Shown: positions 6 to 10,032 of the stretch, in pieces
How positions within the stretch are numbered: the first letter of the stretch is position 1
Layout of the letters: every line of letters starts with the position of its first letter
Source of the DNA: J061 sp003695725 [NCBI: Candidatus Schekmanbacteria bacterium]
Lineage (GTDB): Bacteria > Schekmanbacteria > GWA2-38-11
Assembly: GCA_003695725.1 (NCBI GenBank)
Contig: RFHX01000206.1
Location: 1-11,560, forward strand
DNA: 11,560 bases
Reading direction: 5' to 3'
The notes under the pieces: model-generated
What the model was told of the DNA's origin: nothing
Databases searched by the model: none
What the model saw: only the letters and a program-made list of their open reading frames with translations
Program-made: the position numbers and the translations under genes

Positions 6-830
6 TTACACTTGAACTTTAAAGACATCCTTTAGTCCAAAGGCAGAAATAATTGAGAGGACAAAAAAGACAATAAGCCAGTGAATCTCCACTCCCCAAA
101 ATGTTAAATTCATTTCAGGGTAATTTATTCTTACCTCTTCTATGGGAGAATCTGACGGGAATGGTGTTTCGGCAGGAGTAAGAAGAATATGCTCAAAATT
201 TACCTTTTCCTTTTCTGCACCAACTCGCTGAAGAATGTTTTCTGCTAACAATTTTTTTTCATAGCGTTTACCATTCACAATAAATGTAAGTTTATAATTT
301 CCACTCTTTTCGACTCTTAAACGCCAGTCAATTTCATTCTCTCTTTCAATCCTCAATGGTGGTGCATCCAATTTCAAGCCTTTTGGCAATTCCAATTCAA
401 TATCCGCATTATTTATCAATATGCCATCATCGAGTTTAAGGCAAACTATCGTTTTTTCTCCTTCTTTTAGCGGCCTGTATGCATATCTGCTGTCAAGCTG
501 GACAAGGATAAAAATAACCGGAATTATCATTACAAGCATCGGCGTCACAGAATATCTCATATAAGTAAGGTTTGTCCTCAATATCTTTTTCTGAGATTTT
601 AACATCTGCTGAAGGTCATGATTGAAAAGGCGGACTTCAAGAAGATAACCTTTTATTTTTTCCTTTGTATTTTTAATCCCCTCCTGATTTGACGTATAGC
701 GGAAGATGATTAACATTACAACACCTGTTATGAGTGAAACAACAGTTATTCCCCACACAGGCGCCATATTTTTGAAGGGTGCAAAAATCAGGTCAAACAA
801 CCCATTCAACAATTTCACAAATGTAATCAT
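6..830 (-). CDS. YidC/Oxa1/DUF106-like membrane protein with an extracytoplasmic domain
   Basis: 274 residues, last gene of the operon in the window. Layout seen: a short amphipathic start (residues 5-20), TM1 about 22-43, a charged coiled-coil-like stretch 48-92 rich in Lys, Glu and Gln, TM2 about 94-112, a polar beta-rich region 120-243, and TM3 about 246-265. TM1, cytosolic hairpin, TM2, outside loop, TM3 is the core plan of the Oxa1 superfamily (YidC, DUF106/Ylp1, EMC3, TMCO1), which inserts membrane proteins. Membership is inferred from topology and sequence feel and not from a search. The roughly 120-residue outside domain is larger than the loop at this place in YidC. The ATG has a nearby AAAGGA-type ribosome site. 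The gene starts 51 nt after RHH-2, so it is probably co-transcribed. An insertase role for the AlkP membrane partners is speculation. It could instead be an unrelated three-TM protein. Confidence 0.62.
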   Translation of the reverse strand: MITFVKLLNGLFDLIFAPFKNMAPVWGITVVSLITGVVMLIIFRYTSNQEGIKNTKEKIKGYLLEVRLFNHDLQQMLKSQKKILRTNLTYMRYSVTPMLVMIIPVIFILVQLDSRYAYRPLKEGEKTIVCLKLDDGILINNADIELELPKGLKLDAPPLRIERENEIDWRLRVEKSGNYKLTFIVNGKRYEKKLLAENILQRVGAEKEKVNFEHILLTPAETPFPSDSPIEEVRINYPEMNLTFWGVEIHWLIVFFVLSIISAFGLKDVFKVQV

Positions 831-881
831 CTTTCCTTTTCTAATCCTTTAAAAAAGACCTTAATTTTTTAACAAACAATA

Positions 882-1076
882 TTAGGAAATATATCCAAGT
901 CCCTGCAATTTTTTCTTGATATCTTCTTCGGAATCGGCTTCTTCAAGTTTTGCAATCTCTTTTTCAATCGTATGTGTAATGAATTCTTCTGCTGATGAAT
1001 ATCCGGCAATGTCTGCATATTTCTTTACCTTTGCCAAAAGTTCCTTATCAATCTTTATCTTAGCTCCACCAAACAT
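882..1076 (-). CDS. RHH-2, small ribbon-helix-helix protein with LGY tail
   Basis: 64 residues. A short basic strand (residues 5-9, AKIKI) is followed by two helices, with the G-Y-S-S-A-E-E-F-I turn at 25-33. This is the usual pattern of CopG/Arc/MetJ-type dimeric DNA-binding proteins. Residues 43-53 are acidic, and the protein ends in K-K-K-L-Q-G-L-G-Y-I-S. The same ending occurs on RHH-1 and on the APS kinase of this operon. A strong site (GGGAGG) lies just before the ATG, and the gene follows AlkP-4 by 23 nt. Unlike RHH-1 it has no palindrome upstream, so it may not be a local repressor. It may instead act through protein contact or form mixed dimers with RHH-1. The fold call is fairly safe; target and role are unknown. 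Confidence 0.8.
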   Translation of the reverse strand: MFGGAKIKIDKELLAKVKKYADIAGYSSAEEFITHTIEKEIAKLEEADSEEDIKKKLQGLGYIS

Positions 1077-1099
1077 TTTTCTACCTCCCTGAAATCAGG

Positions 1100-3115
1100 T
1101 TAAAAAATATTACTGCCTACCATTTCTTTTTCCTTTTCAAAGCCAAACTCTGCTAAAAGAGTTGGTGCAATATCATAGAGTGCAGGATTTTCCTTGACAA
1201 TCTTTTTGTTGGAAAGGATTATTCCCGGCACTTCTTCAGGCGCCATACAATGGTCTCCACTCCATGCTTCCATATTGTCCGTAATCAATTCCTTTGGAAA
1301 CTTTCCAAGGCTTGCTTCCCATGAGATACGATAACCTCTCGCAAAACCCAAGAGGATATCTGGGGCATCCTTTACATATGGCCCTGAATAGATGTCATCT
1401 CTTTTATAAACATTTCTGAAAACTTTCTTTCCTGTTTTAGGGTCTACTACTTTTTTCAATTTTTCTACCAGTTCGTCTACAAGTTGATTATATTCATCTC
1501 CCGGAGATACGATTCCATTTGCTTCTCTTCCAGCAAGATTTATGTACAAAGCATTCAATCCCAAGACATATGCCTTGGTCCTACTCCAATCAACATTGGC
1601 AAACAACTCCTCCTCTCCCTGTTTTGAAGGGTCAATCAATGCGACATAACCATTGTTCAAAAGCCAAGTATTTATGTTGAAGGAATAATAGAAGGGCGCA
1701 AAGCCATGGTCAGACATTATAATCAAAGTGGTATTATCATCTATTCGCTTCAAAGTATAACCAAGGATATCATCCATCTCTTCATAAACCTTTTCAAGGA
1801 CATCTCCATATTTATCATAAGATTCCTGATTGAAAGCAGGATGGTTTTTATCATGGAGACGCCAAAACATATGGGCATTTTGGTCAGTGCTTGAAAAATA
1901 ATAAAAGAGAAGTCCGCTTTTAAATTGAGAAAGAAGATAATGATAATTTCTGACCTCCTCTTCATGGACTAATGTTATCTGTTTGATGAATTCACCATCA
2001 TCAAATATTCCGCTTGAGAGGGCTTTTGTGTCTTCTGGCATTCCCTGTGTATAAAAGTATCCTACATTTTCGAAGAGCTCCTTCGAAAAATCGGGCGGCG
2101 TCGAAATGGGCAGAGCAGGGTCTTCAGGATTTATATTTATCGGTGTAACATAAAGCTTGAAATCAGGATGCACTTCTTTTAGATAAAAACGGCATATTCC
2201 CGAAACAGACTGCAAATAGGGTATCAGCTCAAAATCAATCCTAATCCATTCGCTCCATTCGCCTTCCTTCAAGAATATTTCTTTATTAGGAAGCACAATC
2301 TTTGCAACAGGATTTTCAGGGTCAATATAGACTGTGAAATCAACAGTGCAGTCAGGTGCACCTTTTCTGAAGGTATTTTTAGGTCCGTATATTTTCGCTT
2401 TTACAGTATTTCTTTTGACATAAACCTCGTAGTATTTTCCTCCTGAGATTTCGCCGTTTTCCATCTCTGGTTCAACATTGGAATAATATGAAAAAGTCCC
2501 ATATGTCCCAAGCATATCAGGAGTGCCCATTCCTGAAAGAGTTTTTGCCTCACATTCTACAGGTGGAAAATTGGAAGGAATCATATATACTGTGCACGGC
2601 ACACCTTTGCTTTGTAATATTTCCCAAAAAGATTTTCCATGCCGTAAAAGTTCAACCTTGCCTGATTCAAGCGGTATAACCCAATCGCCAATTGTAATGC
2701 TTTTCTTACCCGCCTCTGTGCGTGATGTTGAAAGATAAGGGAAAAGCGTTTTTGGGTCGCGATGGACAAAATCAAATATTCCGTGTCCACCCGGATTCAT
2801 ACCGGTAATAAAATTAGACCATGCAACAGGAGACTGTGGCGGATTGGAAGTTTGAAGCTCTTTAAATGAACCTTCTTCGGCAAGTTTTTTGAAGTTGGGC
2901 ATTCTTCCCTCATCCATCATCTTCCTTAAAATTATAGGGTCCATACCGTCAAAACCTAAAATTAGAACTTTCTTTTTCGTATCAGATGTTTCAGCTTTCT
3001 TCCCGCATCCAATAATTAGAAAAGGTATTATGGCGAAAAGAAGAATGATGCGTACCAAAACTTTACTTTTGCTCTTCAAATTTGATCTGCCTCTCTTAAA
3101 TATCATATCATACAT
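1100..3115 (-). CDS. AlkP-4, alkaline phosphatase superfamily phosphodiesterase-like lipoprotein
   Basis: 671 residues. The N-terminus carries many Lys and Arg, then a hydrophobic stretch 21-36 ending I-I-G-C with Cys37, a plausible though not ideal lipobox. The mature protein would be lipid-anchored outside the inner membrane. Catalytic signature of type I phosphodiesterase/nucleotide pyrophosphatases: D56 (GFDG), predicted nucleophile S95 (SPVAWS, ten residues before the G of ITG), D411/H415, D469-H470-G471 and H622. These would bind two metals for phosphoryl or sulfuryl ester hydrolysis; the substrate is unknown. Between the nucleophile and D411 lies an inserted beta-rich region (about 203-360) shared with AlkP-3. 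The two are clear paralogues along their whole catalytic part. The ATG overlaps the AlkP-3 stop by 8 nt; a second in-frame ATG three codons on is also possible. It lacks the sulfatase C/S-x-P-x-R motif. Confidence 0.88.
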   Translation of the reverse strand: MYDMIFKRGRSNLKSKSKVLVRIILLFAIIPFLIIGCGKKAETSDTKKKVLILGFDGMDPIILRKMMDEGRMPNFKKLAEEGSFKELQTSNPPQSPVAWSNFITGMNPGGHGIFDFVHRDPKTLFPYLSTSRTEAGKKSITIGDWVIPLESGKVELLRHGKSFWEILQSKGVPCTVYMIPSNFPPVECEAKTLSGMGTPDMLGTYGTFSYYSNVEPEMENGEISGGKYYEVYVKRNTVKAKIYGPKNTFRKGAPDCTVDFTVYIDPENPVAKIVLPNKEIFLKEGEWSEWIRIDFELIPYLQSVSGICRFYLKEVHPDFKLYVTPININPEDPALPISTPPDFSKELFENVGYFYTQGMPEDTKALSSGIFDDGEFIKQITLVHEEEVRNYHYLLSQFKSGLLFYYFSSTDQNAHMFWRLHDKNHPAFNQESYDKYGDVLEKVYEEMDDILGYTLKRIDDNTTLIIMSDHGFAPFYYSFNINTWLLNNGYVALIDPSKQGEEELFANVDWSRTKAYVLGLNALYINLAGREANGIVSPGDEYNQLVDELVEKLKKVVDPKTGKKVFRNVYKRDDIYSGPYVKDAPDILLGFARGYRISWEASLGKFPKELITDNMEAWSGDHCMAPEEVPGIILSNKKIVKENPALYDIAPTLLAEFGFEKEKEMVGSNIF

Positions 3116-5240
3116 TGTTAATTAACGGTTTACCCTGCATATATTTAGGAATATCCAAGCCATAGAGCTTTAATACAGTAGGTCCAATATCCATAATCGA
3201 AGGCGAATCCGCATCAATCTTCCTACTGCAAAACAATATACCCGGCGCCAATCGTGGGTCAATACAATGGTCTCCACTCCAGCTTTTCGTATTGTCCTCT
3301 ATTACTTTGTCTGTACATTTGCCCACTGCCGCTTCCCATGAAGTTCTATAACCAACATTGAATCCCACAAAAAGGTCGGGACCATTACCTGCATAAGGTC
3401 CGCTGAAAAGCTCTTTATTGTCATAGAGGCGGCATATTGCAGTTTCTCCCCATTCCTCGTCCTGAAAATTATTGAGTTTTTCACATAACTCTTTTTTCAA
3501 ATTCTCATACTCTTCACCCGGTTCAACAATTCCTTGACCTTCTCTACCTTTCAAATTGATATAGATGCCACCAAGTCCAAAGGTATATGCTCGTGTTTTA
3601 GACCAATCAACACCTTGAAACCACTCTCCTCCTGTACCTCCGTCCTTAAAATGCATATAACCATTTTGATGAAACCATGTATTGAGATTTACACAGCGCC
3701 TAAAAGACTTGAAACCATGGTCAGATATGACCATAAGGACATCCTTCTCTCCAAGCTTCTGCATTGTTTCACCTACAAGTTCGTCCATTTTTTTGTACAT
3801 ATCTTCAATGGAATTTTTATGCTTCACTGTATCTTTATCTTTATTAGCTGGATGCCTATCATCTATATAACGGAAAAACATATGCTGAATTCTGTCTGAT
3901 GTATCAAAAACGCATGCAACCATTCCCTTTTTGATTTTATCAAGCATATTGAAAAACATCTCTCTTCTTTCTTCATAATATTTATATGCCTGTCCCAAAA
4001 AAGCCTCCTCATCAATAACGCGCTCATTAAGAGCCCAAGTGTCTTCTGCAAGTCCCAATGTAGCATAGCGTCCCTGCATTTTGGAAAGATAAACAGAATA
4101 ATAGAGGGGATGAGAAATAGGCATAGCAGGAGTGTCAGGGTCAATATTAATCGGTGTTATATACAATTCAAATTCTGGAGAAACAGACCTCAACAGGAAG
4201 CGGCAAATTCCCTGCACTTTAATACCTAATCCTGCTTTGAAAACAATCACTTTCCAATCTGTATATTCACCTTTTTTAAGTTTGATTTCTTCGTCAGGTA
4301 GTTTCAAAATTGCTTCAGAATCGTTCAATATCTCTATTTTAAAGGGTATTGTCATTTCACCACCATTTTTAAGAAGCGAATTTTCAGGTCCTTTAATATG
4401 ACTTTCAATAATATTGTTTTTTCTTTCCACTAAGACCCTTACTCCGCCAGTATGCTTGCCTACAGAATTTTTATCCGTTGTATAATAAGTAAAAGACCCT
4501 TGCGTGCCTTTGAGGTCAGGAACACACATTCCTGAAAGTGAAACGCCATAAAATTTTTCAGGAGGAAATGTAATTGGAACGCGAAGTACTGCGCTAAAAA
4601 TATGATTGTCTCCTAAAATCTTCCAAAAGGGTTGGCTTTTTCTTAAAAGGGTAATTTCTGGTTTCCCAATTGGGATCTTATATTTCCCAATATTCAAAGT
4701 CTTCTTCGTATTTCCAATGTGCACCGATGAAATATCAGGAAGATATGTTCTTACATCTCTTTTCAAAAAATCGAAAATATTGTGCCTTGAAGGGTCAACT
4801 CCTGTTATAAAGGACGACCATGCAACAGGGGACATTGCAGGATATGTTGTCCTCAATGGGCTGAAAGAGCCTTCCTCTTTGAGTTTTGAAAAATTAGGAA
4901 GTTTCCCCTCGTTCATATATTTTGTAACAAGAGCAGGGTCAAGCCCGTCGAGTCCCAATACAACGACCCTCTCGACATCAGTTTTTTCTCCACTGCGTTT
5001 TTTTATAAATGTCCTAATGATATACCGAATTGGCCAAACAAGAATAGAAAGAAAGGCAAGAAGAAATGTTACAAATAGGACAAAGAAACTTGAAATAAAA
5101 GCAAATCCAGCGCCGGGACCAATGTAGGCATCAGCATCGTAGGAAAAAAAGATTAAAAGAATCGCAAAGGGGATGTATTTCTTAAAAAAAACTGATGATG
5201 ACTTATATCTTAAACTTTTAGTTATCTGCAAATTATTCAT
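3108..5240 (-). CDS. AlkP-3, membrane-anchored alkaline phosphatase superfamily protein
   Basis: 710 residues from the ATG that overlaps the AlkP-2 stop by one base (TGATG), a layout for coupled translation; an upstream in-frame TTG lacks support. The N-terminus is basic (K8, R11, K13, K20, K21). It is followed by a hydrophobic segment 23-33, an A-D-A signal-peptidase-like site near 36-38, the motif Y-I-G-P-G-A-G (39-45), a second hydrophobic segment 46-70, and a basic stretch (R72, R76, K80, K81, R82). By the positive-inside rule the catalytic domain faces the cytoplasm. Active-site residues: D98, predicted nucleophile S137, D449/H453, D507-H508-G509, H658. An inserted region (about 245-400) matches AlkP-4, including a G-I-C-R-F segment and the T-P-I-N-I-x-P motif. 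It ends G-K-P-L, typical of the family. Substrate unknown; membership is secure. Confidence 0.88.
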   Translation of the reverse strand: MNNLQITKSLRYKSSSVFFKKYIPFAILLIFFSYDADAYIGPGAGFAFISSFFVLFVTFLLAFLSILVWPIRYIIRTFIKKRSGEKTDVERVVVLGLDGLDPALVTKYMNEGKLPNFSKLKEEGSFSPLRTTYPAMSPVAWSSFITGVDPSRHNIFDFLKRDVRTYLPDISSVHIGNTKKTLNIGKYKIPIGKPEITLLRKSQPFWKILGDNHIFSAVLRVPITFPPEKFYGVSLSGMCVPDLKGTQGSFTYYTTDKNSVGKHTGGVRVLVERKNNIIESHIKGPENSLLKNGGEMTIPFKIEILNDSEAILKLPDEEIKLKKGEYTDWKVIVFKAGLGIKVQGICRFLLRSVSPEFELYITPINIDPDTPAMPISHPLYYSVYLSKMQGRYATLGLAEDTWALNERVIDEEAFLGQAYKYYEERREMFFNMLDKIKKGMVACVFDTSDRIQHMFFRYIDDRHPANKDKDTVKHKNSIEDMYKKMDELVGETMQKLGEKDVLMVISDHGFKSFRRCVNLNTWFHQNGYMHFKDGGTGGEWFQGVDWSKTRAYTFGLGGIYINLKGREGQGIVEPGEEYENLKKELCEKLNNFQDEEWGETAICRLYDNKELFSGPYAGNGPDLFVGFNVGYRTSWEAAVGKCTDKVIEDNTKSWSGDHCIDPRLAPGILFCSRKIDADSPSIMDIGPTVLKLYGLDIPKYMQGKPLINNV

Positions 5241-6553
5241 CAACTTTCGAAAGTTTTCAGAATGATGCCGGCAACATCTGTAATATTCATTTCTTCTTTT
5301 TCTTTTTTGAATGACCAAAAAAACGCATCATCCCAAGTGTGCATACCACATAAAACCGTTCTATCGAATAGTTCCTTCTTTTTAACCGATCCCTTTAAGT
5401 CAAAACCTCTATTTGACAAAACAACTATATCAGGAGCGTTATCGATGCATTTACCACTGTATATGTCTTCTTTAAAAAATACGCTATTTACTACTTTTTT
5501 GCCGTTGTATTCGAGAGTCTCGAGCTTATCTTTCAACTGCCTTTTCAGTTCTTCTACTTCTCCACCCTCGACACATCCCCTCGGATATTTACCTTTTACA
5601 TTTATATAAATGCGCCCCGGATCAAGAACAAATGCCTTTGTCTCATCTGAAATATCTGCCACAGATTCAGGTAAATCTTTCTTATAACTTATGAAACCTT
5701 CCTTTTCAAGAAATTTGTTCAGATAAACCTCTTGCTCGATTCCTGTAAAACCGTGGTCAGATAAAAGGATAAATTGGCTTCCTCTGTCTGCATCACCTGC
5801 TGTGTCAAGAAATCTCTCATAAACTTCACGAATAAATCCATCAACAGCATTATAATAGTCAAGAAATGCCTGATGATGCTTGTGATTTGAATCCTCCAAT
5901 GCCTCCCATAGGAAATGATGAAGTCTGTCCGTACTTGTTATAACAAGCTCCAAATAATCCCAATCCTGTGTGCGCCACAAAAGGTCAAGGGCTTTTTTTC
6001 TTCCTTCAAGAGTCGAGTAAAGCTCTTTTATAAGAAAATCATGGTCTTCGCGGGCTTTCATTGTATCAACATCTATCTTGTACCCCATTGTTTCAAGCTG
6101 TGATATCAGCGCAAGAGGATAGACGGCTTTTTTGATATTTATAGCCACAAATCCTGAAATCATTGCCCCATTCAAGGGTTTCGCAGGATAGGTAGAAGGC
6201 TGGTTTATGACAACACTTTTTTTACCTTTTTCCTTGAGCTTATCCCATATCGTTGGTGCTTTGAGGTCAGGATACGAAGGGAAAACCATATCATAGGTGC
6301 CGGGTTTCAAATCCATAAAACCAAAAATCCCGTGTTCAGCAGGATTGACTCCTGTCATAAAAGACGACCAACTGACAGATGAAATTTCAGGCAGAGTGAC
6401 TTTCATCTGCTGAAGATTGCCATCACTTTTTAGTTTAGCCATAAATGGCATAATATCTTCATCTATGAAGCGCTCAATCAATGAAAAAGGCACACCATCA
6501 AGACCTACAACACAGCATCTCTTTTTTTTCTTCTTTTTAAAAAAGAAAGCCAA
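5240..6553 (-). CDS. AlkP-2, cytosolic alkaline phosphatase superfamily phosphodiesterase-like protein
   Basis: 437 residues with no signal peptide and no membrane segment, so probably cytosolic. The start is a TTG: an AAGGAGA site sits six bases upstream. The first in-frame ATG (residue 35) would delete D19 of the first metal motif (GLDG), so the TTG is preferred. Residues 3-12 are three Phe, six Lys and an Arg, an odd tail encoded by T- and A-runs. Active-site residues: D19, predicted nucleophile S58 (SSVSWS), D209/H213, D266-H267-G268, H405. It lacks the long insertion of AlkP-3 and AlkP-4 and resembles AlkP-1 in size and in the middle region (P-x-K-P-L-N-G segment). The C-terminus lacks the usual G-K-P-L ending. 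It lies between cysC and AlkP-3 in the operon. Substrate not determinable from sequence. Confidence 0.87.
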   Translation of the reverse strand: MAFFFKKKKKKRCCVVGLDGVPFSLIERFIDEDIMPFMAKLKSDGNLQQMKVTLPEISSVSWSSFMTGVNPAEHGIFGFMDLKPGTYDMVFPSYPDLKAPTIWDKLKEKGKKSVVINQPSTYPAKPLNGAMISGFVAINIKKAVYPLALISQLETMGYKIDVDTMKAREDHDFLIKELYSTLEGRKKALDLLWRTQDWDYLELVITSTDRLHHFLWEALEDSNHKHHQAFLDYYNAVDGFIREVYERFLDTAGDADRGSQFILLSDHGFTGIEQEVYLNKFLEKEGFISYKKDLPESVADISDETKAFVLDPGRIYINVKGKYPRGCVEGGEVEELKRQLKDKLETLEYNGKKVVNSVFFKEDIYSGKCIDNAPDIVVLSNRGFDLKGSVKKKELFDRTVLCGMHTWDDAFFWSFKKEKEEMNITDVAGIILKTFES

Positions 6554-6566
6554 AGGTATCTCCTTT
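6554..6566 (-). promoter_or_regulatory. Ribosome binding site that fixes the TTG start of AlkP-2
   Basis: On the minus strand AAAGGAGA is followed by a six-base spacer from GGAG and then TTG. No ATG lies near in frame, and the next one would remove the first metal-binding Asp. Confidence 0.7.
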
Positions 6567-6573
6567 TAATTTC

Positions 6574-7173
6574 TTAAATATATCCAAGATCCTTTAATCT
6601 TTGCTTTACCTCATCTTCCTCATCTTCAGAATATTCGGATTCTCCGGTTTCCGGAATCAATTTCATCAATTCGAGTGTTCTTATAATCTTCTTTACACTT
6701 TCTTCTATAGATTCCTTGGAAGTATCCACAACTACTTCAGCATTATCAGGTTCTTCATAGGGGTCGTCGACACCTGTGAAATTTTTTATTTCACCTTTAA
6801 GCGCTTTTGCATAAAGTCCCTTTACATCTCTTTCCGTCAAAGTTTCAAGAGGGCATTTGCAGTAAACTTCAACATAATTTTTGATCAATCTGCGATTCTC
6901 CTCCCTTACTGCTTTGTAAGGTGATATCGCCGCCGCAATGGCAACAACTCCATTTCTTGAAAGAAGGTTGCATACAAAACCGATTCGTCTAATATTCGTA
7001 TCTCTGTCTTCTTTTGAAAATCCCAGCCCTTTGCTCAAATTTGTTCTTACTATGTCGGCATCGAGGACTTCAACCTTCATACCCCTTTCAAGAAGAATTG
7101 CCTCAACTTCTCTTGCAAGAGTTGTCTTTCCCGAACCGGAAAGTCCTGTAAACCAAAGTGTAAAACCTTTCAT
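6574..7173 (-). CDS. cysC: Adenylylsulfate (APS) kinase with an added LGY tail
   Basis: 199 residues. It phosphorylates APS with ATP at the 3' position to give PAPS. Seen: P-loop G-L-S-G-S-G-K-T (10-17); D-A-D-I-V-R (38-43) with G-L-G-F-S-K-E-D-R and N-I-R-R-I-G (60-65), the APS-binding stretch; I-S-P-Y (83-86); F-T-G-V-D-D-P-Y (132-139), a hallmark of the family. The kinase domain ends near residue 172. After it come an acidic linker (E178 to E188, mostly Glu, Asp and Ser) and the ending [11 protein letters not shown]. This is not part of ordinary CysC and matches the ends of RHH-1 and RHH-2. The ATG at 7173 has GGAGG seven bases upstream; an in-frame TTG at 7203 is less likely. It lies two genes after sat, its partner enzyme, with AlkP-1 between them. 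Confidence 0.95.
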
Positions 7174-7209
7174 TAATCTTCCTCCAATTTTTTCTAAATT
7201 CAAATTTCT

Positions 7210-8586
7210 TTATATCAGCGGTTTCCCTATCATATTTTCAGGTATATCTATCCCATAAAATTTGAGAATCGATGGAGCAATATCATATATAGAAATTGTA
7301 TCTTCTCTTTTATCCCATTTTTTACCCGGGATCCTCCAAATAAAAATTCCTTCCTGAGCATGATTTGCATCATCAGGTCCTGTATCATTTTCATAGATGT
7401 GAATAGAGCCAGTACCAACTGAACCGGCTGAACGCCAATCCAAGTTTCCCGGATAAAGAATCAGGTCAGGCGGTATGTTCTTGCACTCTCTATAAATCTC
7501 CTCAGGCTTGAATATACGGTTATTGATTAAATTCCCGTTTTCGTCAGTCATAGCTTCGAGTTTAGCGATAAGTTGGTTTCTAAAGGATTCATATTCGTCT
7601 TGAGGAATGACTCCTTGCGGCTCACGACCTTTAACATTAAAAAATATCCTCGAATAATAACCGCCTTCACCCCAACAGCTAGTTTTCTCCCAATCTATCA
7701 TATCCATCTTTAGGCGTGTTTGTTCCTTTGGCTGTTCTTTCAAGGTAAGATACCCTTCCTGCTGAAACCATTCATTGATGCATATCGCTCCATGCATTGT
7801 CTTTGCACCATGATCTGAAACAATTATGACGGAAGTATCTTTATCGAGCTGTTTTAGAGTTTCTCCTACTTCACTATCAACATACCTGTAATAATCTTTT
7901 ATTGCATTTTCATATTTGTTTCCCGGCTCATATAGGCGATGGTCTTTGTCAAAAAATCGCCAAAAGCCATGATGAATGCGGTCTATACCCATCTCGACCA
8001 TCATAGCAAAATCGAAATCCTTCTTTAAAAAGTGCCGAAACGCTTTGAAGCGGCGTTCTGTCATAACATAAATGGATTTTAAGAGTTTGTCTTTATCGTC
8101 TGTTCTAAAATCGTCCACATCGATTATATAATCTCCTTCTGCGGCTTGATCCAATTCCGCCTTGATATCATCAGGCCATGTAAATTGAACATCCTTGTTG
8201 GGCGTTAAAAAACTTGCAATAAGGACTCCATTCAAGGGCTTGGGAGGGTATGTTTGAGGGACACCCATAATAAGTGAACTCATTCTATTTCTTGATAGAT
8301 AGTTCCAAATCGTCTTTGCTTTTACATAATTGGCATTGGCAAAATAAAGGTCATCATATCCATAACTTTTCCTATTCCTGAAGCCGTAAAAACCAAGCAT
8401 ACCGGGGTCATGCGATGTCATCATAGCTGTCCATGCTGGCACAGTAATTGGAGGAATAGTTGATACCATTTTACCGTAAAGGGCATCATCGATAACCGAT
8501 TTTATATTTGGAAGCTCATCGAGCCATTTATCAAAGACGAGTTGAGGCGTTGCACAGTCAAGACCTATTACAACAAGTTTCGTCAT
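7210..8586 (-). CDS. AlkP-1, cytosolic alkaline phosphatase superfamily phosphodiesterase-like protein
   Basis: 458 residues, no signal peptide. Type I phosphodiesterase/nucleotide pyrophosphatase motifs: D10 (IGLDC), predicted nucleophile T48 (TVPAWT), D202/H206, D258-H259-G260, H409 (D-D-A-N-H). It ends D-I-P-E-N-M-I-G-K-P-L-I, the normal family C-terminus. This is the only one of the four with Thr at the nucleophile position; the others have Ser. Trp follows four residues later in all four, where sulfatases have Arg, so a formylglycine sulfatase is unlikely. The ATG at 8586 is chosen because AAAGGAG lies 11 bases upstream, just after the sat stop; an in-frame TTG at 8607 overlaps sat. It sits between sat and cysC, so a nucleotide or sulfonucleotide substrate such as APS, PAPS or PAP is a reasonable guess, not shown. 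Confidence 0.88.
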   Translation of the reverse strand: MTKLVVIGLDCATPQLVFDKWLDELPNIKSVIDDALYGKMVSTIPPITVPAWTAMMTSHDPGMLGFYGFRNRKSYGYDDLYFANANYVKAKTIWNYLSRNRMSSLIMGVPQTYPPKPLNGVLIASFLTPNKDVQFTWPDDIKAELDQAAEGDYIIDVDDFRTDDKDKLLKSIYVMTERRFKAFRHFLKKDFDFAMMVEMGIDRIHHGFWRFFDKDHRLYEPGNKYENAIKDYYRYVDSEVGETLKQLDKDTSVIIVSDHGAKTMHGAICINEWFQQEGYLTLKEQPKEQTRLKMDMIDWEKTSCWGEGGYYSRIFFNVKGREPQGVIPQDEYESFRNQLIAKLEAMTDENGNLINNRIFKPEEIYRECKNIPPDLILYPGNLDWRSAGSVGTGSIHIYENDTGPDDANHAQEGIFIWRIPGKKWDKREDTISIYDIAPSILKFYGIDIPENMIGKPLI

Positions 8587-8603
8587 AGTTAAATTATCTC
8601 CTT

Positions 8604-9746
8604 TCAAGAATTTTTCATACTTCTTATCAATACCTCTGCCACCTCAGGCCGAGTAAATTCTGCCGGGGGCTTTTGTCCCGCCCTTAACATTTCACGCACT
8701 TTCGTACCGCTCAAGAAAACATGGTGCTCCTTTGAATGCGGACAGGTTTTTGTCGAAGCCATATTTCCGCATACTTTACAATAAAATGCATGCTCGAAAA
8801 AGAGAGGTGTAATCTCAATCTCTTTTGGGTCGAATTCATTAAAAATCAACTGTGCATCATAAGTGCCATAATAATTGCCAACTCCTGCATGGTCGCGCCC
8901 AACAATAAAATGTGTACATCCATAATTTTTCCTTGCTATGGCATGAAATATTGCTTCAGAAGGTCCAGCATAACGCATTGCCGCAGGAAATATAGATATG
9001 GCAACTCTATCTTTAGGATAATAATTTTCTAAAAGTGTCGTATAACATTGCCACCTTACATCACCCGGAATATCATCACCTTTTGTTGCGCCCATCAAAG
9101 GATGGATAAGCAGGGCATCTACAATTTCAAGGGCGCATTTTTGCAAATATTCATGGGCTCTGTGAATTGGATTTCGAGTCTGAAAGGCAGTGATTGTCTT
9201 CCATCCCTTCTCTTCAAAAAGTTTTCTTGTGTCTGCCGGGTCAAGACGAAATTCATTAAAATCATCATAGTGAGGCTTTTCAATGAGAGTAATCTTTCCT
9301 CCAATATAGGTATTGCTGATAGAATCAAGATATTGCACACCCGGATGTGCCTTGTCAGTTGTCCGTAAAACTGCCTGTGCTTCCTTTTCTTTATCAAAAG
9401 TAAATTTATCCTCAACTTCCATTACTGCAAGGATATTCCCATTTTGGCAAAGAGCTATCTCACTGCCAATTTCAACATCATCTCCTTCTTTTTCAGATAA
9501 GACAACGGGTATCGTCCAAACAGGACCTGTCGAAAGATGTCTCTCCTCAAGGACTGATTTGTAGTCTTTAGATGTCATAAAGCCTTCAAGTGGACTGAGC
9601 GCACCTGTTGCTATCATCTCTAAATCACTTGTCTCTCTCTCATTAAGAGCTATTTTTTTCAAATTTTGAGCTTTTTCTTTTAATTTATTTCTGCTTTCAT
9701 CATCAGCTATTCTATTGATAAGTTTTCCACCATGAGGTTTAATCAT
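8604..9746 (-). CDS. sat: Sulfate adenylyltransferase (ATP sulfurylase)
   Basis: 380 residues. It makes APS and pyrophosphate from sulfate and ATP. Seen: the N-terminal region with L-S-P-L-E-G-F-M (50-57); the nucleotide site Q-T-R-N-P-I-H-R-A-H (189-198); G-R-D-H-A-G (283-288); a zinc cluster C323, C326, C335, H337; and the C-terminal segment S-G-T-K-V-R-E-M-L-R with P-P-A-E-F-T-R-P-E-V. This is the single-subunit Sat, not CysDN. It has no fused kinase domain, and cysC is separate in the same operon. Length is normal for prokaryotic Sat. The ATG at 9746 has GGGAG eight bases upstream; a GTG five codons earlier overlaps that site. Sat and CysC together supply PAPS. Sat can run backward in dissimilatory sulfate metabolism, but the cysC partner argues for PAPS supply here. 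Confidence 0.97.
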   Translation of the reverse strand: MIKPHGGKLINRIADDESRNKLKEKAQNLKKIALNERETSDLEMIATGALSPLEGFMTSKDYKSVLEERHLSTGPVWTIPVVLSEKEGDDVEIGSEIALCQNGNILAVMEVEDKFTFDKEKEAQAVLRTTDKAHPGVQYLDSISNTYIGGKITLIEKPHYDDFNEFRLDPADTRKLFEEKGWKTITAFQTRNPIHRAHEYLQKCALEIVDALLIHPLMGATKGDDIPGDVRWQCYTTLLENYYPKDRVAISIFPAAMRYAGPSEAIFHAIARKNYGCTHFIVGRDHAGVGNYYGTYDAQLIFNEFDPKEIEITPLFFEHAFYCKVCGNMASTKTCPHSKEHHVFLSGTKVREMLRAGQKPPAEFTRPEVAEVLIRSMKNS

Positions 9747-9775
9747 TCTTAATTCTCCCACAATTAAAAAGTTGC

Positions 9776-9988
9776 TTATAAATATCCAAGATTTTTCAAT
9801 TTTTGTTTTATTCTTTTCAATTCGTCAGGTTTTAATGCATCATCCTCTGAACTTATTCCAGCGTCGCTTACCATATCCCGAAGGACATAGACTATGAAAT
9901 CCGTTGGGGAATTAAAACCTGAATCCGAGATAAGCTGTTGAATTTTATTATACAAAACGCGTGGAATCTTTATTGTTACTTTATCCAT
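9776..9988 (-). CDS. RHH-1, ribbon-helix-helix repressor-like protein with LGY tail
   Basis: 70 residues, first gene of the operon. Strand D-K-V-T-I-K-I-P (2-9), helix A, turn G-F-N-S-P-T-D-F-I (24-32) and helix B match the CopG/Arc/MetJ fold. An acidic linker (47-56) and a basic helix follow, ending I-K-Q-K-L-K-N-L-G-Y-L. The ending matches RHH-2 and the APS kinase. The ATG at 9988 is preferred because AAGAG lies eight bases upstream; a GTG at 9997 (73 residues) would overlap that site. Just upstream, two palindromes overlap the promoter, as expected for an RHH protein repressing its own operon. The tail is extra to the usual short RHH protein and could sense a partner protein. An antitoxin role is less likely, because no toxin gene follows and the next gene is sat. 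Confidence 0.83.
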   Translation of the reverse strand: MDKVTIKIPRVLYNKIQQLISDSGFNSPTDFIVYVLRDMVSDAGISSEDDALKPDELKRIKQKLKNLGYL

Positions 9989-9995
9989 ATCATAC

Positions 9996-10032
9996 ACTCT
10001 TATAAGAGTTTTATAGCACTCTTATATGAGTG
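9996..10032. promoter_or_regulatory. Tandem palindromic operator, probably bound by RHH-1
   Basis: The first site, 9996-10009, is ACTCTTATAAGAGT, a perfect 14-bp palindrome. The second, 10017-10032, is CACTCTTATATGAGTG, palindromic except for one mirrored pair. Read as direct repeats, 9995-10009 and 10017-10031 differ at one base of fifteen. Centres are 22 bp apart, about two helix turns, so bound dimers would lie on the same DNA face. The right site covers the -10 box and the left one lies between the transcription start and the first codon. This is the classic layout for an autorepressing RHH protein. Assignment to RHH-1 and not RHH-2 is by position. Confidence 0.75.

What the first reader, a model, noticed from the sequence alone, without database searches (positions are those of the whole stretch)
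6574..6645. APS kinase carries the same C-terminal tail as two RHH proteins of its operon
CysC (residues 177-199) has an acidic linker and then [14 protein letters not shown]-1 (9776-9853) ends I-K-Q-K-L-K-N-L-G-Y-L and RHH-2 (882-941) ends I-K-K-K-L-Q-G-L-G-Y-I-S, both also after an acidic stretch. Three unrelated folds in one operon share K-x-x-L-x-x-L-G-Y-(I/L) at the very end. At the DNA level AAATATATCCAAG recurs at 887-899 and 6576-6588, and AAATATCCAAG at 9780-9790. In my recollection similar L-x-x-L-G-Y endings occur on some sulfatase and AlkP-type proteins, yet here none of the four AlkPs has it. It may be a detachable docking peptide joining regulator, PAPS synthesis and hydrolases.
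Basis: partly seen in the sequence, partly recalled or inferred. Interest (0 to 1): 0.82.

Follow-up and report, generated by a model that had tools for sequence, protein, structure and literature searches.

The report
Shared C-terminal tag in sulfate operons
Unrelated proteins of one widespread, apparently undescribed bacterial gene cluster (gene regulators, a sulfate-activating kinase and phosphatase-like enzymes) end in the same short helix, which looks like a detachable plug that lets them gather on a common partner.

Summary
Confirmed, and more general than claimed. CysC, RHH-1 and RHH-2 all end (K/R)-L-x-x-L-G-Y. In 290 diverse genomes I followed 61 strict terminal [KRQ]LxxLGY[LIVMF] sites; 53 end an ORF of at least 30 aa: 28 AlkP-superfamily enzymes (14 PF01663-type, 14 sulfatases; Pfam confirms 28 of 28), 22 CysC, CysD or RHH-like proteins, 3 others. 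Control motifs (LYG 23 sites, LGF 17) end 4 short anonymous ORFs, with no AlkP in any of 40 loci. The operon RHH1-Sat-AlkA-CysC-AlkB-AlkC-AlkD-RHH2-EMC3-like recurs in MAGs of many phyla. Pooling all loci fetched, RHH1 (25/25) and RHH2 (36/36) carry the tail; AlkB, AlkC, AlkD, Sat and the EMC3-like protein never do (0/191). Elsewhere PF01663 enzymes often carry it themselves. RHH-1 has palindromic RCTC-N6-GAGY sites upstream in 8 of 23 loci. Best reading: a portable C-terminal docking helix gathering regulator and enzymes on a common partner, perhaps the AlkP fold. No contact was shown. Against an AlkP receptor: an archaeal tailed RHH in a genome without a PF01663 hit, and AlkB loci without a tail. 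CysD's similar end belongs to its own fold. The DNA repeat reflects shared codons. Seven searches found no paper on it.

The parts
6574..6609 (-). CysC terminal tail [11 protein letters not shown] plus stop
   Evidence: outside the APS-kinase model; conserved in homologues
6610..6660 (-). CysC acidic, variable linker and helix N-cap (…[14 protein letters not shown])
   Evidence: alignment; linker identity 0.46 against 0.75 for the tail; AlphaFold helix 193-206
6574..7203 (-). CysC, APS kinase (likely start ATG at 7173)
   Evidence: PF01583 E 4.5e-61; NF002059 over cut-off
9776..9811 (-). RHH-1 terminal tail IKQKLKNLGYL plus stop
9776..9988 (-). RHH-1, ribbon-helix-helix-like regulator
   Evidence: sequence pattern; no Pfam or NCBIfam hit; 25 of 25 distinct homologues in the fetched loci are tailed, also when searched with a profile without the tail
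9996..10009 (.). probable RHH-1 operator, palindrome ACTCTTATAAGAGT
10018..10031 (.). probable RHH-1 operator, second copy ACTCTTATATGAGT, 22 bp start to start
882..920 (-). RHH-2 terminal tail IKKKLQGLGYIS plus stop
882..1076 (-). RHH-2, ribbon-helix-helix-like small protein
   Evidence: weak VapB-type hit E 0.0095 below cut-off; 36 of 36 distinct homologues in the fetched loci are tailed
8604..9761 (-). Sat, ATP sulfurylase, no tail
   Evidence: PF01747, PF14306
7210..8607 (-). AlkA, PF01663 AlkP-superfamily enzyme, no tail
5240..6553 (-). AlkB, PF01663 AlkP-superfamily enzyme, no tail
3108..5318 (-). AlkC, PF01663 enzyme with hydrophobic N-terminal stretches, no tail
   Evidence: sequence
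1100..3115 (-). AlkD, PF01663 enzyme with lipoprotein-like N-terminus, no tail
6..830 (-). EMC3/TMCO1-like membrane protein (weak hit below cut-off), no tail
   Evidence: PF01956 17.7 bits against cut-off 27.1

Best explanation
The end [S/T/D]-x-E-E-x(3-4)-(I/V/L)-x-x-(R/K)-L-x-x-L-G-Y-(I/L/M) is a portable C-terminal docking helix. Shown here: the motif, its near-exclusive use (in the census) by AlkP-superfamily enzymes and by sulfate-activation and RHH-like proteins, its conservation next to a variable linker, its absence from five co-encoded families, and palindromes in front of RHH-1. Inferred: the helix plugs into a groove on a shared partner, so that regulator (RHH-1), adaptor (RHH-2) and PAPS-forming CysC gather on tail-less operon proteins. 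Where an AlkP carries the tail itself, the same contact would be made in cis or between subunits. The likeliest acceptor is the AlkP fold (about 0.35); Sat, or several acceptors, remain possible. The tailed repressor could then sense how much acceptor is free.
For: Own genome: both pattern hits are in this operon. Census: of 61 strict sites fetched, 53 end an ORF of 30 aa or more (61 sites re-found by script); 50 of the 53 are in five groups (14 sulfatase, 14 PF01663-type, 9 CysC, 8 CysD-like, 5 RHH-like), and two of the other three lie just before AlkB or AlkC. Pfam confirms all 28 AlkP-superfamily members. Controls: LYG 3 of 23 and LGF 1 of 17 sites end short anonymous ORFs, 0 of 40 loci with an AlkP. 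Pooled loci: RHH1 25/25, RHH2 36/36 tailed; AlkB 0/51, AlkC 0/27, AlkD 0/32, EMC3-like 0/37, Sat 0/44, AlkA 1/37; of 3709 other ORFs of at least 150 aa (all frames, spurious ones included) 4. RHH profiles without the tail still find only tailed proteins (46 of 46, 51 of 51, the two sets may overlap). Cis-versus-trans trade: L028 has an untailed CysC but a tailed AlkA-like enzyme; L341 has a tail-less PF01663 enzyme beside a PAPS_reduct-like protein with the tail. In L008 and L035 a DUF2061 membrane protein also bears it. In L173 a CysC-like protein whose P-loop is gone (only 54.6 bits to PF01583) still has the tail. Tail identity 0.73/0.81/0.75 against linker 0.37/0.49/0.46. AlphaFold makes the CysC tail a separate helix after the kinase fold.
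Against: No binding was measured or modelled; AlphaFold gives the tail helix of the L028 enzyme only moderate confidence (blocks 71 and 66), and no coordinates could be read. Of 35 AlkB loci 26 have a tailed protein in the fetched stretch and 9 do not, two of these (L322, L324) with 17 kb of context. The archaeal RHH of L036 is tailed, next to Sat and CysC, in a genome with no PF01663 hit; in the other archaeal genome (L038) the two PF01663 proteins found have no tail. Untailed CysC beside AlkA exists (L031, L330). CysD's LGYM end is a variant of the terminus all CysD seen share. Sulfatases with export-type N-termini and cytosolic CysC cannot share one receptor protein, so either the AlkP fold is the receptor in both places or the two uses differ. 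Only 6 of 30 sulfatases chosen by score have the tail.
Confidence: 0.55

Rival explanations
1. Each protein ends in its own stable helix cap: L-x-x-L-G-Y-(I/L) resembles the common Schellman-type helix ending (recalled), reached independently, without a common partner.
For: The canonical CysC end (LELMGYIP, LKELGYIE) and the CysD end (KKxxGYF, LRxxGYM) look alike and belong to their folds.
Against: A generic cap should appear on many families. In the census it is confined to AlkP, CysC, CysD-like and RHH-like proteins plus 3 small ORFs; 4 of 3709 other ORFs have it; with F for Y the 17 sites followed end only one short ORF. In CysC it is a second such ending after a variable linker, beyond the kinase model.
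Confidence: 0.22
2. The tail is a degradation or processing signal read by a protease, which keeps the amounts of these proteins matched.
For: A hydrophobic extreme C-terminus after a flexible acidic linker is compatible with C-terminal degrons (recalled knowledge, no call).
Against: It sits on cytosolic proteins and on proteins with export-type N-termini, so no single protease would see both. It is kept in family-specific variants (mostly NLGYL in RHH-1, DLGYI in CysC, GLGYIS in RHH-2), unexpected for a plain degron.
Confidence: 0.1
3. The tails bind each other: homotypic helical bundles assemble CysC, RHH-1, RHH-2 and tailed AlkPs, with no separate acceptor.
For: Several tails per operon; amphipathic spacing of I, L, L; RHH proteins are dimers as a family (recalled).
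Against: Some loci show only one tailed protein in the fetched stretch: a PF01663 enzyme alone (L150, L151, L164, L181). The motif is strongly acidic at its start, which disfavours like-with-like packing.
Confidence: 0.1
4. The tail is a membrane-binding amphipathic helix that brings the proteins to AlkC, AlkD and the EMC3-like protein at the inner membrane.
For: Three tail-less operon members look membrane-bound; one tailed family, DUF2061, is annotated as membrane protein.
Against: The N-terminal half of the helix is acidic (EEEE), unlike usual membrane-binding helices (recalled); sulfatases with export-type N-termini carry it too.
Confidence: 0.03

Closest known systems
Short C-terminal helical docking or encapsulation peptides (for example microcompartment targeting peptides; recalled)
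   Same: A short amphipathic helix at the end of unrelated enzymes, joined by a flexible linker, recruiting them to a common partner.
   Different: No shell protein among the window genes named; here a probable DNA-binding regulator carries the tag too, and the motif is a fixed LxxLGY end.
APS kinase CysC (PF01583, NF002059)
   Same: The kinase domain matches over cut-off.
   Different: The model stops at residue 182; residues 183-209 (linker and tail) are additional.
CysD, sulfate adenylyltransferase subunit 2 (TIGR02039; structure 1ZUN)
   Same: Ends in G-Y-F or G-Y-M; a subset, mostly near AlkP genes, ends LRxLGYM.
   Different: In CysD the end is part of the conserved family sequence, aligned to the end of the 1ZUN chain, not an appended tail.
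PF01663 nucleotide pyrophosphatase/phosphodiesterase and S1-type sulfatases
   Same: Families of the tailed enzymes; Foldseek matches the L028 model to ENPP enzymes and phosphonoacetate hydrolase.
   Different: Among the solved chains listed, none reaches the LGY end of the profiles; 9s03 comes closest, to position 77 of 82 (best 60 rows shown each).

Membership tests
APS kinase (CysC) | PF01583 domain over cut-off | tested here: met
   205.8 bits against 21.1
APS kinase (CysC) | Protein ends with the family model | tested here: not met
   NF002059 covers 11-182 of 209; the tail is extra
Ribbon-helix-helix regulator (RHH-1) | Pfam or NCBIfam RHH model | tested here: not met
   no hit; assignment by sequence pattern only
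Ribbon-helix-helix regulator (RHH-1) | Palindromic sites in front of its own gene | tested here: met
   RCTC-N6-GAGY: 9 sites in 8 of 23 upstream stretches against 0.13 sites in base shuffles; 0 sites in 20 stretches for RHH-2. The motif was defined after seeing the sequences, and three of the loci are close relatives.
AlkP superfamily, PF01663 (AlkA-AlkD) | PF01663 over cut-off | tested here: met
   110-143 bits against 23
Portable C-terminal docking peptide | Same motif at the end of unrelated folds, after a variable linker | tested here: met
Portable C-terminal docking peptide | Binds a common receptor | not testable with these tools
   no complex prediction or binding data
Microcompartment or encapsulin cargo tag | Shell protein encoded nearby | tested here: inconclusive
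   none among the ten window proteins scanned; not searched genome-wide
EMC3/TMCO1 family (274-aa protein) | PF01956 over cut-off | tested here: not met
   17.7 bits against 27.1

The most novel reading that the evidence does not exclude
The operon uses one interchangeable plug to couple gene control to enzyme assembly: repressor RHH-1 and kinase CysC carry the same tail and compete for the same groove on a tail-less AlkP enzyme, so free enzyme pulls the repressor off its RCTC-N6-GAGY operator; and the same plug, in cis, regulates AlkP enzymes and sulfatases across many phyla.
Probability: 0.15. Interest if true: 0.9.

Novelty: new variant of a known kind. Interest (0 to 1): 0.7.

Why it matters
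It names a terminal motif, not found in print here, that marks a whole functional set (sulfate activation, AlkP enzymes, their probable regulator) across MAGs of many phyla, and a nine-gene operon built round it. The motif gives a simple handle: a pull-down with one short peptide could reveal what the four AlkP enzymes and the EMC3-like protein do with activated sulfate. It also suggests which AlkP and sulfatase genes belong together, and offers a case of regulator and enzyme sharing a docking tag.

Tried and rejected
DNA-level repeat (AAATATATCCAAG): rejected as a mobile or regulatory element, because it is the codon image of LGYI/L.

EMC3-like protein as universal receptor: rejected. It was found in 30 of 290 genomes, and not in G113, G255, G138 and G306 (86-90% complete), which have tailed clusters. 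AlkB as obligate receptor: rejected. Of 35 AlkB loci, the 18 fetched earlier all have a tailed protein (17 of them had been fetched for a tail or CysC, L295 for CysD); of the 17 fetched afterwards, a set therefore poor in known tails, 8 do and 9 do not, and contig ends cut seven of the nine on at least one side. AlkA as sole receptor: weakened by untailed CysC beside AlkA (L031, L330).

CysD as a borrowed tail: rejected. All CysD seen end GYF (30 of 30 long-class loci, only about 4 kb each, so neighbours unseen) or GYM (short class); LGYM is a local variant. Of 9 LGYM loci, 7 have an AlkP gene in the stretch; of 14 other short-class loci, 0 (stretches 3.5-16.8 kb; 8 of the 9 had been picked for the tail, L295 had not).

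Structures: AlphaFold of CysC and of the L028 enzyme gave helices but no readable contacts. Solved structures: none listed that reaches the tail. Papers: (search listings only, no paper opened) show nothing on this motif or operon; the library holds open-licence papers only.

Limits. Family labels from then on come from home-made profiles seeded partly with the tailed proteins; Pfam was run on all 28 census AlkP members but on only a few CysC and CysD. The RHH profiles first held the tail; profiles without it gave the same result. ORFs were called mechanically. Counts pool loci chosen in several ways, many for CysC or the tail itself, with distinctness judged on the last 60 residues and score thresholds of my own (AlkA-like enzymes such as the tailed one of L028 fall in 'other PF01663', 33 of 67 tailed). 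The census followed only the rows listed ('more matches are not listed'); I dropped rows by eye that do not translate to the motif and gave 93 to the script, which kept 63. The control sites were picked by eye from listed rows (23 LYG of about 33, 17 LGF); all 40 were checked to be strict. Control windows were 6 kb or less, test windows up to 17 kb, so the neighbour comparison favours the test set; the comparison of what carries the motif does not depend on that. The 20 PF01663-type loci were picked by hand from the lower rows, leaving out those already fetched for a tail. The segment identities used only proteins that fit my cut-out pattern (11 RHH1, 17 RHH2, 28 CysC), which favours the tail. 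The table misfiled L019, corrected by hand; 4 of 63 loci without a complete CysC were left out. An earlier count said 12 of 20 PF01663-type loci with a cis tail; the count is 11 of 20.

Full report
Observation. CysC, RHH-1 and RHH-2 end [22 protein letters not shown] and IKKKLQGLGYIS after acidic stretches. The four AlkPs, Sat and the membrane protein lack them. The recurring DNA word is the codon image of LGYI/L. In the own genome, the pattern [KR]LxxLGYx-stop has two hits, both here; read backwards it has three.

The operon is conserved. A scan with CysC brought 63 loci, from MAGs labelled Omnitrophota, Planctomycetota, Eisenbacteria, Hebobacteria, Acidobacteria, Latescibacterota, Krumholzibacteriia and others, and more distant CysC loci of actinobacteria and archaea. 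The order RHH1-Sat-AlkA-CysC-AlkB-AlkC-AlkD-RHH2-EMC3-like recurs with local losses and turns. The three tails mostly keep their own signatures: NLGYL in RHH-1, DLGYI in CysC, GLGYIS in RHH-2. In CysC the alignment shows the kinase ending LELMGYIP, then a variable linker, then the tail, beyond the APS-kinase model. Mean pairwise identity of tails is 0.73, 0.81 and 0.75 (RHH1, RHH2, CysC) against 0.37, 0.49 and 0.46 for linkers and 0.72, 0.62 and 0.72 for cores (the tails were cut out with a motif, which favours them).

The motif is specific. In 290 genomes, mostly one or two per family, the listed rows gave 63 strict sites. Sixty-one were fetched (two lie in genomes already held); 53 end an ORF of at least 30 aa: 14 sulfatases, 14 PF01663-type enzymes, 9 CysC, 8 CysD-like, 5 RHH-like and 3 others. 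Pfam agrees for all 28 AlkP-superfamily members. The 8 loci without such an ORF hold no AlkP (0 of 8). Of the 25 ORFs that are not AlkP enzymes, 21 have one in the fetched stretch (8 of 9 CysC, 6 of 8 CysD-like, 4 of 5 RHH-like, 3 of 3 others). Of the 3 others, a 91-aa ORF lies just before AlkB (L149), a 37-aa ORF just before AlkC (L174), and a 50-aa ORF (L177) is probably spurious. Control motifs in the same genomes: LYG, 23 sites followed, 3 short ORFs; LGF, 17 sites, 1 short ORF; no AlkP in any of the 40 loci.

Donors and non-donors. Over all loci fetched, RHH1 25 of 25 and RHH2 36 of 36 are tailed (also with profiles that lack the tail); AlkB 0 of 51, AlkC 0 of 27, AlkD 0 of 32, Sat 0 of 44, EMC3-like 0 of 37, AlkA 1 of 37, CysC 44 of 87; of 3709 other ORFs of 150 aa or more, 4. 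In 20 PF01663-type loci picked from the lower rows, not for the tail, 11 carry it in cis. Among 30 sulfatases taken as the best hit of a genome, 6 do. Where a protein lacks it, a neighbour may have it: in L341 a tail-less PF01663 enzyme sits beside a tailed PAPS_reduct-like protein; in L028 CysC is bare and an AlkA-like enzyme is tailed; in L008 and L035 a DUF2061 membrane protein joins the tailed set. In L173 a CysC-like protein has lost its P-loop but kept the tail.

Association with AlkP. Of 59 CysC loci with a complete CysC, the 24 tailed ones all have an AlkP gene in the fetched stretch, against 5 of 35 untailed (L019 moved by hand; Fisher p 3e-11 before the move; the tailed CysC are related to each other, so the test overstates independence). 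L026 and L027 have AlkP genes and degenerate CysC tails but intact RHH tails.

Regulation. The 100 bases before RHH-1 hold RCTC-N6-GAGY palindromes: 9 sites in 8 of 23 loci against 0.13 sites expected from base shuffles, none in 20 RHH-2 stretches (motif defined after inspection). In the window there are two, 22 bp apart. So RHH-1 is probably an autoregulator, although no RHH model matches it.

Against. The archaeal L036 has a tailed RHH beside Sat and CysC in a genome without a PF01663 hit; the PF01663 proteins of the other archaeal genome have no tail. Of 35 AlkB loci 26 have a tailed protein in the stretch and 9 do not; contig ends cut seven of the nine. CysD's LGYM end is a variant of the terminus of all CysD seen and aligns with the end of the 1ZUN chain. 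AlphaFold makes the CysC tail a separate helix (pLDDT blocks 82 and 87) and gives the L028 tail moderate confidence (71 and 66); neither shows a partner.

Mechanism (inference). A helix at the extreme end, conserved behind a variable linker, found on unrelated proteins of one system and absent from others, is best explained by docking. The AlkP fold is the one component that could be common to the cytosolic and exported settings, which makes it my first choice of acceptor, at about one in three. The chemistry of the operon stays unknown: it should make PAPS and has four AlkP enzymes, and no sulfotransferase was recognised among the ten window proteins scanned.

Known or new. Docking tags are a known kind; this motif, its family set and the operon were not found in print in seven searches (listings only).

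Noticed in passing
window 6-830: Membrane protein with a weak EMC3/TMCO1 (Oxa1-type insertase) hit and a large extra domain, beside RHH-2 wherever RHH-2 was seen; also next to CysD in L160.
   Followed up: partly
window 6-9988: Nine-gene operon of unknown chemistry in MAGs of many phyla: PAPS synthesis plus four AlkP enzymes, with no sulfotransferase recognised among its genes.
   Followed up: partly
L036 7555-10549 and L038 1224-4577: Archaeal clusters RHH(tail)-Sat-DHH-type protein-CysC (Pfam DHH for L036); L038 also has a sulfotransferase, so the tailed RHH goes with PAPS synthesis there without an AlkP gene recognised in the fetched stretch.
   Followed up: partly
L174 1188-1301: A 37-codon lysine-rich ORF that is little more than the tail, directly upstream of an AlkC gene; may be a stand-alone tail peptide or a spurious ORF.
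   Followed up: no
L173 8001-8549: CysC-like protein in an otherwise normal operon whose P-loop is gone (GPSPALAA in place of GLSGSGKT) but whose tail is kept; possibly a non-catalytic tail carrier.
   Followed up: partly
L169 7818-11042 and L167 6760-10002: Tailed sulfatase fused to a lysylphosphatidylglycerol-synthase-type membrane domain (Pfam for L169; L167 by similar length and place) inside CysC/AlkP clusters.
   Followed up: no
own genome G000: 15 sulfatase-family (PF00884) matches at E 1e-20 or better in a 2.8-Mb genome.
   Followed up: no
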